NCBI GenBank assembly: GCA_937899835.1
Contig: CALCCE010000285.1
Location: 1-51,195 of the forward strand
Source: an uncultured Flavobacteriales bacterium
Lineage (GTDB): Bacteria; Bacteroidota; Bacteroidia; Flavobacteriales_G; Salibacteraceae
Direction of reading: 5' to 3'
Length of the DNA stretch: 51,195 nucleotides
In this document: positions 14,792 through 19,864 of the stretch, piece after piece
How the letters are laid out: each line of letters begins with the position of its first letter
Numbering within the stretch: the first letter of the stretch is position 1
Made by a program: the position numbers and the translations under genes
Notes under the pieces: generated by a model
Told to the model about the DNA's origin: nothing
What the model saw: only the letters and a program-made list of their open reading frames with translations
Database searches by the model: none

Positions 14792-17020
<2,229 letters not shown>

Positions 17021-17062: not shown

Positions 17063-17340
17063 GGCTTTAGATGCGTTGAAAAAAAGCTGAAACAGGAGCT
17101 ATTGTCGTCTTTAATTGGTGTACCCTTTCCTCAGTCCGTTACCGAAACCTACGAATTGGTATTTGCCTTGCTATCCCAACTCATTAAGAGGCCTTGACAG
17201 GAGCCGATTGGATAAGGCTGGGCTTATCACTGTTCAGGTAATTTAGCTACTTGTCTTTGCAGGAAACAAATAAAAACACAACAGGCTCATTTTGAGAAAC
17301 TTGTATAAAAATCTACACGGCGAATTGGAAAAAAATGCAC

Positions 17341-17436
17341 CATTTAATAGAATCCCTACAGCGTCATTTAATAGAAATAGCACAACATCATTTAATAGAA
17401 TGTCTACAGCATCATTTAATAGAAAAGCTACGTAAG
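17341..17436. repeat. Four 24-bp tandem direct repeats upstream of the Fic gene
   Basis: The 12-base core CATTTAATAGAA occurs at 17341, 17365, 17389 and 17413, exactly 24 bases apart, identical in all four units. The 12-base filler between cores is partly conserved (CTACAGC in units 1 and 3). A fifth, weaker core with ATTAATAGAA lies at about 17562-17571. The array is 190 bases before the Fic start and about 340 bases from the isocitrate dehydrogenase start. A 24-bp period is slightly more than two helical turns, so proteins bound to successive cores would sit at a regular angular offset. It looks like a multimeric operator or iteron set. Confidence 0.85.
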
Positions 17437-17450
17437 CTCTATTAAAAATG
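17413..17450. promoter_or_regulatory. Imperfect inverted repeat formed by the last direct-repeat unit
   Basis: The fourth core and its flank (CATTTAATAGAAAAGCT) face a near-complement whose reverse reads CATTTTTAATAGAGCTT, with a short centre ACGTA. The array therefore ends with one reversed copy of the same site. This fits a dimeric winged-helix regulator. Confidence 0.5.
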
Positions 17451-17529
17451 ACTCTAAATGAATATAATAAGCCATCTTTCGATGAATAAGGAGGGCATAA
17501 ATTTTACAAACTTTATACTGTTGCAGATT

Positions 17530-17567
17530 TTAATTGATGATTTTTGGGTTTAAAAAGCATCAATTAA
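17530..17567. promoter_or_regulatory. Perfect 10-bp inverted repeat in the Fic promoter region
   Basis: TTAATTGATG at 17530-17539 and CATCAATTAA at 17558-17567 are exact complements, 18 bases apart. The spacer holds GATTTTTG, one base from the -7 consensus TAnnTTTG. The gene starts 60 bases downstream. A repressor bound here would cover the likely promoter. Confidence 0.55.
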
Positions 17568-17627
17568 TAGAAAAAATACATAAATTAGGGTTGAGAAAGT
17601 TAAGATTAAGAAGATATACCTTGATTC

Positions 17628-19193
17628 ATGAGCTCTAACGAAAAGTTAGCACAGTCTTTAGAGCGTCTAAAAAAACTTCAAGACGAGGGAAAAGTTGGCC
17701 TCAGAGCAGATGAATTGTCCAGAGTTCATCGTGAACGCCTCATTAGGGCAGGCTTCATCAAAGAGGTGGTTAAGGGATGGTATATTATCTCACCACAGGA
17801 TGAACAGCCCGGTGACAGCACCTCCTGGTATATTTCTTTTTGGGGATTTGTGGCGCGTTACCTAAAGGATCGGTACGGCCAGCATTATTGCTTGTCTGCC
17901 GAACAATCGCTTTTACTACATTCCAAAAATACTTCTGTACCCGGGCAATTGTTGGTACGCAGTCCTTTTGGCAACAATCGGCCAACTCAGCTAATGTTTA
18001 AAACATCGCTGTTTATGCTGAAAGGGTCTTTGCCGTCAGATGACGAAGTAGACGAATGGAACGGTCTAAGAATTTTCTCACTTGCTGCATCGATCACCGA
18101 CATCAATCCTTCATTCTATTTGAAACGCCCAACGGATATACGGGCGGCTTTAATGATGATTTCCGATTCTTCAGAAATTCTGGAGCCGTTGCTGATCGGT
18201 GGCCATACGGTACTTGCGGGTCGATTGGCCGGAGCCTTTCGTAACATGGGGCAAGATAAAATTGCCGATGAAATTGTAATCGCCATGCGGATGGCGGATT
18301 ATGATGTCCGGGAGAAAGACCCTTTTCAGGCACCACCACCCGTAACTTTTCGGGAGCGATCGCCATACGTGAACCGCCTCCGACTTATGTGGCATCAAAT
18401 GCGCCCGGTGGTGCTCAAGCATTTTCCCGATATTCCTGGTATTCCACAAGATCGAGAGGCTTTCCTGAAACAGATTGAGGCTTTGTATACCACGGATGCC
18501 TACCACTCTTTATCCATTGAAAAATATACAGTTACACCAGAATTGATTGAACGGGTACGCTCCGGCAAATGGGATCATCAAAACAATGCCAACGACCAAC
18601 GCGCAAGAGATGCAATGGCCGCCCGTGGTTACTGGCAAGCTTTTAATAAAGTGAAGGCAAGCATCATCCATGTATTGGATGGAGGCAACCCGGGAGAAGT
18701 AGCCAATCAGGACCACGGTGGTTGGTACCGCGAGCTATTTGCCCCTGGGGTACAAGCTGGATTGCTCAAACCAAGCGATTTGGCGGGTTATCGCAATCAC
18801 CAGGTTTATATCGGCCAATCCAAACACACACCGGTAGATAAAGTAGGGGTGCGCGATTCTATGCCGGTTTTATTCGAATTGATCCAAGAAGAAGAACACC
18901 CGGCAGTTAGGGCTGTGCTGGGGCATTTTCTTTTGGTATACATCCACCCTTATATGGATGGAAACGGCCGAATGGGTCGTTTCCTAATGAATTTAATGTT
19001 GATTTCGGGTGGTTACCCCTGGACGGTTATTCCCGTGGAGCAACGCTGGGAATACATGGAGGCACTTGAAAGCGCCAGCACCTTGAATGATATTGAGCCT
19101 TTTTGCCAATTTATGAGCTGGTTGGTAGAGTCTGGCCTTAAAGGAAATCCGGTTGCCCAAATCACATGGGCTAATCTCAGTTTCCCAGACTAA
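17628..19193 (+). CDS. Fic-domain protein with N-terminal antitoxin-like winged helix
   Basis: The 521-residue protein has a C-terminal Fic domain with the catalytic loop HPYMDGNGRMGR (His440 to Arg451), which fits HxFx(D/E)GNGRxxR with Tyr for Phe. Such enzymes usually transfer AMP to target hydroxyls. Residues 294-299, SLSIEK, sit where class II Fic proteins carry the self-inhibitory (S/T)xxxE(G/N); Glu298 is present but followed by Lys. Residues 20-130 resemble the AbiEi/type IV antitoxin N-terminus: a winged helix (VHRERLIRAGFIKEVVKGWY) and the strand HYCLSAEQSLLLHSK. A DNA-binding, self-regulating Fic protein is inferred. Its stop overlaps the convergent gene by 4 bases. Confidence 0.85.
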   Translation: MSSNEKLAQSLERLKKLQDEGKVGLRADELSRVHRERLIRAGFIKEVVKGWYIISPQDEQPGDSTSWYISFWGFVARYLKDRYGQHYCLSAEQSLLLHSKNTSVPGQLLVRSPFGNNRPTQLMFKTSLFMLKGSLPSDDEVDEWNGLRIFSLAASITDINPSFYLKRPTDIRAALMMISDSSEILEPLLIGGHTVLAGRLAGAFRNMGQDKIADEIVIAMRMADYDVREKDPFQAPPPVTFRERSPYVNRLRLMWHQMRPVVLKHFPDIPGIPQDREAFLKQIEALYTTDAYHSLSIEKYTVTPELIERVRSGKWDHQNNANDQRARDAMAARGYWQAFNKVKASIIHVLDGGNPGEVANQDHGGWYRELFAPGVQAGLLKPSDLAGYRNHQVYIGQSKHTPVDKVGVRDSMPVLFELIQEEEHPAVRAVLGHFLLVYIHPYMDGNGRMGRFLMNLMLISGGYPWTVIPVEQRWEYMEALESASTLNDIEPFCQFMSWLVESGLKGNPVAQITWANLSFPD

Positions 19194-19864
19194 ACGACCG
19201 CTAAAGCTAAAATACAAGCCAGCAACATCACTGCTCCTTCGATCAAACCCAGGCCAAGGATCCAAAGCCACGAACTCTTTTCCACGCAGAGCAACAAATA
19301 CGGGACGGGCACCATAAGCAGCCCTTCGGCTATGATAACATAAATGGGCACCGGGCCCAGCATTGGAGTGTCTTTGTAGCTCCACCAGCCTGCATCAATG
19401 GCCCAATGTTCATAAAGTGGTACCAATAAAGCGCCCAAAACGCCCAACAGCAACCCTGCCAGCGAAGGGTGCATTTTGCGCGCCATTAGCCAACCTAAAA
19501 AGCCAAACTCGATCAGCACCACCGTCCAGGAAAAAGGCATATAGGCTGGAGAGCTCCAGAGCATCGGCTCATCGGTAGGATAGATCAAAGTATCTGAAAT
19601 GGCTACGAGGTAATGATCGGCTACCAGTTCGGCCAATCCGGCTACAACCGCAAAGCCCAGAAACTTAAGTATGAGCTGGTCTTTGGCCGCAATGGCATAG
19701 AGTAGAAAGACTGCGGTGAAACCATAGCCCCAAATTTCAGCAGACAGGACTCCCTTGAAAAAAAGGCTATCCAACAGCAGTATCCCAATGGACACTCCCA
19801 TGGTGCCCATTACAAAGAATGTTCTGCGTTTACCTTCGTTAGAAATTGCAGTGGAGCTGCTCAT
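19190..19864 (-). CDS. Multi-pass membrane protein, possibly carotenoid-biosynthesis related (CruF-like)
   Basis: The 224-residue protein has about seven hydrophobic segments. The polar loops are distinctive: LVADHYLVAISDTLIYPTDE, then LWSSPAYMPFSW and YEHWAIDAGWWSYKDTPMLG followed by PVPIYVIIAEGLLM. Conserved His/Trp/Asp positions between helices are typical of CruF-like carotenoid hydratase or lycopene-cyclase-type membrane enzymes. I treat that as a resemblance, strengthened by the desaturase-like flavoprotein just upstream. ATG 19864 overlaps that gene's stop (ATGA), so the two are translationally coupled. It is the last gene of the operon. Confidence 0.6.
   Translation of the reverse strand: MSSSTAISNEGKRRTFFVMGTMGVSIGILLLDSLFFKGVLSAEIWGYGFTAVFLLYAIAAKDQLILKFLGFAVVAGLAELVADHYLVAISDTLIYPTDEPMLWSSPAYMPFSWTVVLIEFGFLGWLMARKMHPSLAGLLLGVLGALLVPLYEHWAIDAGWWSYKDTPMLGPVPIYVIIAEGLLMVPVPYLLLCVEKSSWLWILGLGLIEGAVMLLACILALAVV

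What the first reader, a model, noticed from the sequence alone, without database searches (positions are those of the whole stretch)
17341..17567. 24-bp operator-like repeat array and two inverted repeats in front of the Fic gene
Four identical CATTTAATAGAA cores sit at an exact 24-base period, the fourth is answered by a reversed copy (17413-17450), and a separate perfect 10-bp inverted repeat (17530-17567) brackets a near-consensus -7 box. The downstream protein itself carries a winged-helix N-terminus. AbiEi-type antitoxins are known to repress their own promoters through repeats. Together this suggests cooperative self-regulation of a Fic toxin by its own DNA-binding domain, which I do not know to be described for this architecture.
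Basis: partly seen in the sequence, partly recalled or inferred. Interest (0 to 1): 0.75.

Follow-up and report, generated by a model that had tools for sequence, protein, structure and literature searches.

The report
Fic enzyme with private operator array
A bacterial Fic enzyme that appears to be fused to its own DNA-binding repressor is preceded, in most relatives examined from several bacterial phyla, by a row of 24-base repeats whose letters differ from gene to gene, which suggests that each protein reads a private landing strip to control itself.

Summary
The array is real: four identical CATTTAATAGAA cores at exactly 24 bp (17341-17424), a one-mismatch fifth copy (17561-17572), a weak reversed copy and a 16-bp inverted repeat (15 of 16 paired). 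Four of the five exact copies in the 6.9-Mb genome lie here. The surprise is its generality. In 56 of 63 family loci scored (the window's own unnamed class and phylum, Neomarinimicrobiota, alpha-, beta- and gammaproteobacterial plasmids, viral contigs) the Fic gene is preceded by a 23/24-bp direct-repeat array; none of 19 other Fic genes and none of 9 stand-alone AbiEi-type genes has a comparable one at that period. Letters change by lineage, even between two paralogues in one genome, but period, orientation and closeness to the start codon mostly do not. Array similarity tracks the N-terminal domain beyond what the Fic domain explains. AlphaFold plus fold search give the N-terminal 225 residues the two-domain AbiEi/Rv2827c fold, whose characterised members bind 23-bp repeats; the rest is a class II (self-inhibited) Fic. 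Best reading: an AbiEi-Fic fusion that autorepresses, one monomer per unit. Not shown: binding, repression, toxicity. Close precedents: AbiEi, Rv2827c, CccR. A new variant of a known kind; ten open-literature searches found no description.

The parts
17341..17352 (+). repeat unit core 1 (CATTTAATAGAA)
   Evidence: exact match
17365..17376 (+). repeat unit core 2, 24 bp on
   Evidence: exact match
17389..17400 (+). repeat unit core 3, 24 bp on
   Evidence: exact match
17413..17424 (+). repeat unit core 4, 24 bp on
   Evidence: exact match
17336..17437 (+). whole 24-bp direct-repeat array (about 4 units of the generic form core + GCACAACA-like half)
   Evidence: lag-24 identity 55 of 78; 0 of 100 shuffles reach the score
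17437..17450 (-). degenerate reversed copy of the core
   Evidence: 9 of 12 ungapped; weak
17530..17567 (.). inverted repeat, arms 17530-17545 and 17552-17567 (15 of 16 complementary)
   Evidence: possible start-proximal operator pair
17561..17572 (+). fifth core copy, one mismatch, 55 bp before the start codon
17628..19193 (+). Fic gene (521 aa), AbiEi-like N-terminal region fused to a class II Fic domain
   Evidence: ORF; Pfam Fic 6.4e-13; alignments of relatives
17628..17801 (+). winged helix-turn-helix (residues 1-58)
   Evidence: model H3-19, E24-26, H32-41, E44-48, E51-54; fold matches over about 1-58
17817..18302 (+). AbiEi C-terminal-domain-like part (residues 64-225)
   Evidence: Rv2827c Z 10.2 over 5-225, AbiEi Z 9.4 over 9-204
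18507..18521 (+). Fic inhibitory motif SLSIE (residues 294-298)
   Evidence: invariant in 34 of 34 aligned proteins; aligns with FICD TVAIEG
18945..18980 (+). Fic catalytic motif HPYMDGNGRMGR (residues 440-451)

Best explanation
The gene encodes one polypeptide that joins an AbiEi-type DNA-binding repressor (winged helix plus AbiEi C-terminal domain, residues 1-225) to a self-inhibited class II Fic AMP-transferase (about 268-505). The 24-bp array is its private operator: one monomer sits on each unit, neighbours packed head to tail, so that rising protein levels shut off the promoter and keep the Fic enzyme scarce. Array and N-terminal domain co-evolve, so each locus has its own recognition letters. 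Shown here by computation: the array, its recurrence with near-fixed period and orientation, the fold of the model, the co-variation. Inferred: binding, one monomer per unit, repression, and that the Fic part is harmful in excess.
For: 56 of 63 scored family loci have a lag 23/24 array beating all 100 shuffles (42 of 47; 14 of 16 fetched after the idea was formed). Controls: of 19 other Fic genes one scores 12.6 or more, at lag 28, and the two whose best lag is 23 or 24 score 7.0 and 7.8, the background level; of 9 stand-alone AbiEi_4-type genes none has its best lag at 23/24. In 41 array-bearing loci under 80% identity, with lags limited to 22-25: period 24 in 36, 23 in 5, array end a median 28 bp before the start codon, same orientation in 40 of 41, unit identity 0.73 within arrays against 0.45 between loci. 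DNA core similarity follows residues 1-140 (r 0.55) beyond the Fic domain (partial 0.36, 0 of 2000 permutations) and not the reverse (partial -0.04). Two paralogues in one genome (L010, L049) carry different arrays, which speaks against a shared host factor. The N-terminal model matches Rv2827c and AbiEi first and second; AbiEi and Rv2827c bind 23-bp repeats at their own promoters (PMC7319586, passages). Two plasmid loci with 98.8% identical proteins differ by one whole 24-bp unit. In at least 12 of 27 loci an exact TAnnTTTG lies 7-18 bp before the array (no shuffle control run for this).
Against: No binding or expression data. Seven of 63 loci fail the test (L007, L017, L044, L048, L061, L096, L115), though some show degenerate units by eye. 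In this window the main array lies 196 bp before the start codon, the extreme outlier of 41, and no clean promoter was found. The co-variation could be inflated because the N-terminal part varies more than the Fic part, and the permutation ignores relatedness; no single peak falls on the recognition helix (best windows 41-55 and 121-135, partial 0.20 and 0.18). By sequence alone the N-terminus matches no AbiEi family well (PADLOC AbiEi E 0.046; no AbiEi family in Pfam), and with the full-length model AbiEi is not among the 50 listed fold matches. Direct repeats before AbiEi-like genes are not unique to this family: 3 of the 9 stand-alone controls beat all 50 shuffles, at lags 29, 30 and 38. 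Of 80 other ORFs 12 had their best lag at 23/24, 3 of these being loci of this family.
Confidence: 0.8

Rival explanations
1. The array works as RNA: it is transcribed as a leader, as in type III toxin-antitoxin systems, and the repeat RNA restrains the Fic enzyme or its translation.
For: In at least 12 of 27 loci the array lies just after an exact -7-like box and before the start codon, so it is probably transcribed there. L045, L075 and the window's inverted-repeat stretch fold better than shuffles (z -3.7, -2.6, -2.1).
Against: No consistent structure: z +0.45 (window array), +2.29 (L006), +0.87 (L074), -0.24 (L013), -1.04 (L043). No terminator between array and gene found in the window. 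No Rfam match up to E 1. Fic is not a ToxN-type RNase, and the model has a DNA-binding fold.
Confidence: 0.07
2. The array is the operator of another regulator, encoded elsewhere or by the host.
For: The window does not prove which protein reads it.
Against: In 18 annotated plasmid stretches no named neighbour recurs more than three times (a recombinase in L073, L118, L079; a DEAD/DEAH helicase in L076, L077); two paralogues in one genome have different arrays; letters follow this protein's N-terminus.
Confidence: 0.06
3. The repeats are a replication or mobile-element feature (iterons, minisatellite, recombination site) that happens to sit there.
For: Iteron-like period; many loci are on plasmids; a unit was gained or lost whole.
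Against: Also on contigs of many whole genomes; same orientation to the gene in 40 of 41; not seen at this period and strength before 19 other Fic genes.
Confidence: 0.03
4. The units are tandem promoter (-7) boxes giving graded transcription.
For: In some loci the units contain TAATTTTA-like letters.
Against: Proteobacterial arrays keep the period with other letters; the window's units do not match the box.
Confidence: 0.03

Closest known systems
AbiEi of the AbiE type IV toxin-antitoxin system (Streptococcus agalactiae) and Rv2827c
   Same: Same two-domain fold for residues 5-225 of the model; promoter repeats of nearly the same length (23 bp) and autorepression; AbiEi binds as monomers, and four bound species were seen for Rv2827c on four repeats (PMC7319586, abstract and passages).
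   Different: There the antitoxin is a separate protein with an AbiEii/DUF1814 partner and the repeats are inverted pairs; here it is fused to Fic, the adjacent genes are not AbiEii and the repeats are head-to-tail arrays.
CccR of Yersinia pseudotuberculosis
   Same: Fic protein with its own DNA-binding domain that represses its own promoter (PMC9755527, abstract and passages).
   Different: HTH at the C-terminus; two 10-bp inverted boxes 26 bp apart; dimer; secreted by type VI secretion.
CbFic2 of Coxiella burnetii and SoFic
   Same: Class II Fic with a winged helix; DNA binding changes CbFic2 activity (PMC10628234, abstract and passages).
   Different: C-terminal winged helix and N-terminal DUF4172; no repeat array in the passages read; the Fic part here is closest by sequence among solved structures to FICD.
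Type III toxin-antitoxin systems (ToxIN; recalled, not from a call)
   Same: Tandem direct repeats before a toxin gene.
   Different: There the repeats act as RNA on a ToxN RNase; here no consistent RNA structure and a Fic protein.

Membership tests
AbiEi antitoxin/repressor family | winged helix plus AbiEi C-terminal domain fold | tested here: met
   on a predicted model: Rv2827c Z 10.2 over 5-225 (210 aligned), AbiEi Z 9.4 over 9-204 (166 aligned); Foldseek E 4.2e-4 and 2.3e-3
AbiEi antitoxin/repressor family | significant sequence match to AbiEi profiles | tested here: not met
   PADLOC AbiEi E 0.046 over residues 36-63 only; no AbiEi model among the nine Pfam families matched up to E 1 by 36 members
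AbiE type IV toxin-antitoxin system | adjacent AbiEii nucleotidyltransferase gene | tested here: not met
   window neighbours are monomeric isocitrate dehydrogenase and a DUF6989 protein
AbiE type IV toxin-antitoxin system | 23-bp inverted repeats at the promoter | tested here: inconclusive
   the shared feature is a direct 23/24-bp array; the window has one inverted pair of 16-bp arms besides; promoter not located
Class II Fic AMP-transferase | HPFx[D/E]GNGRxxR-type motif | tested here: met
   HPYMDGNGRMGR 440-451; H, P, D, G, N, G, R, R invariant in 34 of 34
Class II Fic AMP-transferase | inhibitory helix [S/T]xxxE[G/N] before the Fic core | tested here: met
   SLSIE invariant in 34 of 34, aligned with FICD TVAIEG; the residue after E is K here, so the last position of the motif departs; it is G in the majority consensus
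CccR/SoFic/CbFic2 architecture | DNA-binding domain C-terminal to Fic | tested here: not met
   Fic match reaches residue 504 of 521; winged helix modelled at 1-58
Autoregulated Fic repressor (function) | protein binds its own promoter and lowers expression | not testable with these tools
   needs binding and reporter assays
Type III toxin-antitoxin | structured repeat RNA antitoxin | tested here: inconclusive
   fold z-scores from +2.3 to -3.7 with no common fold; no Rfam match in the window stretch

The most novel reading that the evidence does not exclude
The array is more than an operator: it is a DNA-based brake. AbiEi-Fic monomers packed head to tail on the units are held with their Fic domains close together, in a dimeric inactive or deAMPylating state (as proposed for CbFic2 on DNA), so the locus measures protein per gene copy and frees active Fic when the array is lost, diluted or cleared, for example by plasmid loss or phage infection. 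This would be a single-gene toxin whose antitoxin is its own domain plus its own DNA.
Probability: 0.13. Interest if true: 0.88.

Novelty: new variant of a known kind. Interest (0 to 1): 0.66.

Why it matters
It ties a widespread Fic subfamily to a cis-element that can be spotted by eye and that predicts its regulator. Because dozens of natural protein/array pairs exist, one set as paralogues in one genome, the family is a ready-made collection for working out how AbiEi-type winged helices choose DNA letters and how self-restrained Fic enzymes are kept in check. It also extends AbiEi-type control from two-gene systems to a one-protein fusion found on plasmids and in genomes of several phyla.

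Tried and rejected
RNA reading: folds, terminator scan and Rfam gave no common structure; kept as a low rival. Looking for the N-terminal domain without Fic, to separate the two roles: in 149 class genomes 10 matched with 11 places; nine lie in frames of 516-540 aa and two (G072, 162 aa; G112, 324 aa) in short frames that I take for broken copies, G112 having a second Fic-side match beside it and G072 none. In plasmids 78 records matched, 60 were listed and 52 of these carry the label Fic; the other eight are unannotated, hypothetical or without a feature. So the test could not be made cleanly. Co-variation by sliding window: no clear peak on the recognition helix. Stand-alone AbiEi control by PADLOC model: 1 of 149 genomes, so Pfam AbiEi_4 was used instead (11 loci; 9 tested, 2 without a usable ORF; two of the nine ORFs, L125 and L130, look poorly chosen; three of the nine have shuffle-beating direct repeats at lags 29, 30 and 38). 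Phage records: 4 of 50,697, Fic-domain matches only. The one exact core elsewhere in the genome (C97) has no second exact copy and was not studied further.

Rows dropped: the 63 scored loci are those with a usable gene start. Left out as fragments or without the N-terminal end: L015, L016 (same place as L068), L069, L070, L071 and L072; L069 shows repeats by eye but was not scored. Repeat fetches of the same genes (L051, L053, L055, L084-L094 and the like) were not counted again. Of 180 plasmid records matched (75 covering 80% or more) I fetched 18 stretches. Of 17 viral loci the nine full-length ones were used. Some of the 63 are near-duplicates (L098, L099, L101). The 59 unit profiles leave out L048, L061, L096 and L115; the 41-locus set also leaves out short proteins, L017, L044, L065, L099 and sequences 80% or more alike, so period, distance and identity figures are conditional on having an array. 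In one search the L014 stretch was given on the wrong strand and is ignored.

Literature: ten searches showed no paper on Fic genes with direct-repeat arrays; only open-licence PubMed Central papers are held, no preprints. Seen: abstract, outline and passages of PMC9755527; abstract and passages of PMC7319586, PMC10628234 and PMC8562856 (104, unrelated direct repeats). Hampton 2018 on AbiEi was seen only as a reference.

Full report
Observation. The four CATTTAATAGAA cores lie at 17341, 17365, 17389 and 17413, exactly 24 bp apart; a fifth with one mismatch lies at 17561. The exact 12-mer occurs five times in the 6.9-Mb genome, four of them here. The lag-24 self-match of the 320 bp upstream of the gene scores 31.8; the best of 100 dinucleotide shuffles scores 16.6. 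A 16-bp inverted repeat (15 of 16 paired) lies at 17530-17567, its right arm running into the fifth copy. The reversed copy at 17437-17450 is weak.

Protein. The gene at 17628-19193 encodes 521 residues; Pfam finds only Fic. Neighbours are a monomeric isocitrate dehydrogenase (14792-17011, other strand) and a DUF6989 protein (19190-19864, other strand), so no partner gene of a two-gene toxin-antitoxin system is adjacent. Across 34 aligned relatives the Fic motif core and SLSIE are invariant; SLSIE aligns with TVAIEG of FICD, so this looks like a class II, self-inhibited Fic. The modelled N-terminal 225 residues (mean pLDDT 90) match Rv2827c and AbiEi first and second in Foldseek (E 4.2e-4 and 2.3e-3) and in VIA-align (Z 10.2 over 210 residues; Z 9.4 over 166; the tool warns that Z of 7 to 8 is common for unrelated folds). 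With the full-length model the listed matches are Fic proteins and AbiEi does not appear among the 50 rows. Sequence profiles alone do not show the relation.

Generality. Orthologues are patchy: 20 of 395 class genomes at E 1e-60 or better, own genome and two fragments included; 23 of 395 in the phylum with the N-terminal query at 1e-5; two Neomarinimicrobiota loci; plasmids of alpha-, beta- and gammaproteobacteria and gut Bacteroidales; nine full-length relatives on viral contigs. Of 47 loci, 42 have a 23- or 24-bp direct-repeat array before the start codon that beats all 100 shuffles; of 16 fetched afterwards, 14 do. The seven that fail are L007 (5 of 100 shuffles reach it), L017 (lag 32), L044 (38 of 100), L048 (57), L061 (99), L096 (lag 33) and L115 (3 of 100). 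What was left out of the 63 is listed in Tried and rejected.

Controls. Of 19 other Fic genes (from the genomes) one scores 12.6 or more, at lag 28; the two with best lag 23 or 24 score 7.0 and 7.8. Of 80 other ORFs five score 12.6 or more: two (L057, L060) are truncated members of this family, one (L065) is probably the divergent gene facing the same array, one is the lag-28 Fic gene again, one (L040) has lag 21; 12 of the 80 have their best lag at 23 or 24. No shuffles were run for these controls. Of nine stand-alone AbiEi_4-type genes none has its best lag at 23 or 24, but three beat all 50 shuffles at lags 29, 30 and 38, so repeats before AbiEi-like genes may be wider spread; what sets this family apart is the near-constant 23/24-bp period.

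Layout. In 41 array-bearing loci under 80% protein identity (lags limited to 22-25) the period is 24 in 36 and 23 in 5; the median is 3.5 units (1.6-6.7); the array ends a median 28 bp (quartiles 18-43) before the start codon, with this window (196 bp) the extreme; orientation to the gene is the same in 40 of 41 in a leave-one-out test; units are 73% alike within arrays and 45% between loci, the first figure helped by the way arrays were chosen. The generic unit is roughly aCTAAtttTtacACAaCAnnAAAA, with lineage-specific letters such as CCTAA, GCTAA, ACGTG, ACTTG, ACAAAGT or, here, AATAGAA. Two plasmid loci with 98.8% identical proteins (L073, L118) differ by one complete 24-bp unit and little else nearby. 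In at least 12 of 27 loci tested an exact TAnnTTTG lies 7-18 bp before the array, two of them (L044, L048) loci whose array is not significant; no shuffle control was run. The window shows no clean promoter.

Who reads it. DNA core similarity correlates with similarity of residues 1-140 (r 0.55) more than with the Fic domain (r 0.44); the partial correlation for the N-terminus given Fic is 0.36 (0 of 2000 permutations) and for Fic given the N-terminus -0.04; bootstrap 2.5-97.5% for the difference in r is 0.03-0.18. The N-terminus varies more and the permutation ignores relatedness, which may inflate this; no peak singles out the recognition helix. One genome holds two paralogues, 76% identical, with different arrays. 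In 18 annotated plasmid stretches no named neighbour recurs more than three times. Together this makes the Fic protein's own N-terminus the likeliest reader.

Mechanism. AbiEi and Rv2827c bind 23-bp repeats at their own promoters and repress them, as inverted pairs (PMC7319586). A period of 23-24 bp is not a whole number of helical turns, so the spacing looks like the footprint of one monomer packed against the next rather than same-face alignment (inference). I therefore propose head-to-tail loading of AbiEi-Fic monomers and repression at or just after the start site. Binding, repression and toxicity are not shown.

Comparison. Fic self-repression through an attached HTH is known for CccR, with a C-terminal HTH and one pair of inverted boxes (PMC9755527). 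DNA binding changes the activity of CbFic2 (PMC10628234). What appears new is the N-terminal AbiEi-type fusion with a private head-to-tail 24-bp array, kept across phyla. Ten literature searches showed no account of it (listed in Tried and rejected).

Noticed in passing
L073 and L118, upstream of the fic gene: Plasmid loci of B. thetaiotaomicron and Phocaeicola vulgatus with 98.8% identical Fic proteins differ by exactly one 24-bp unit; the gene recurs on plasmids of about 31-35 kb in gut Bacteroidales.
   Followed up: partly
L010 and L049 (genome G045): Two Fic paralogues in one genome, 76% identical, with different array letters: a natural test pair for private specificity.
   Followed up: partly
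L061, L065, L057, L060, L016/L068, L017: Truncated or frame-broken members of the family; L061 keeps only one recognisable repeat unit by eye.
   Followed up: no
window 17817-18302 (residues 64-225): This part also resembles nucleotidyltransferase-fold proteins such as MenT1 (Z 8.2) and JHP933, hinting that the AbiEi C-terminal domain is a worn nucleotidyltransferase fold.
   Followed up: no
L128 upstream region (genome G087): A stand-alone AbiEi_4-type gene has a direct repeat at lag 29 close to its start (score 16.6, 0 of 50 shuffles), perhaps a cousin of the Fic arrays.
   Followed up: no
L078 98-1219 and 1495-3033: Aminobacter plasmid with two different Fic genes in a row, the second being the array-bearing kind.
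   Followed up: no
window 17449-17490: Tiny ORF (13 codons and a stop) between the array and the inverted repeat; probably chance.
   Followed up: no
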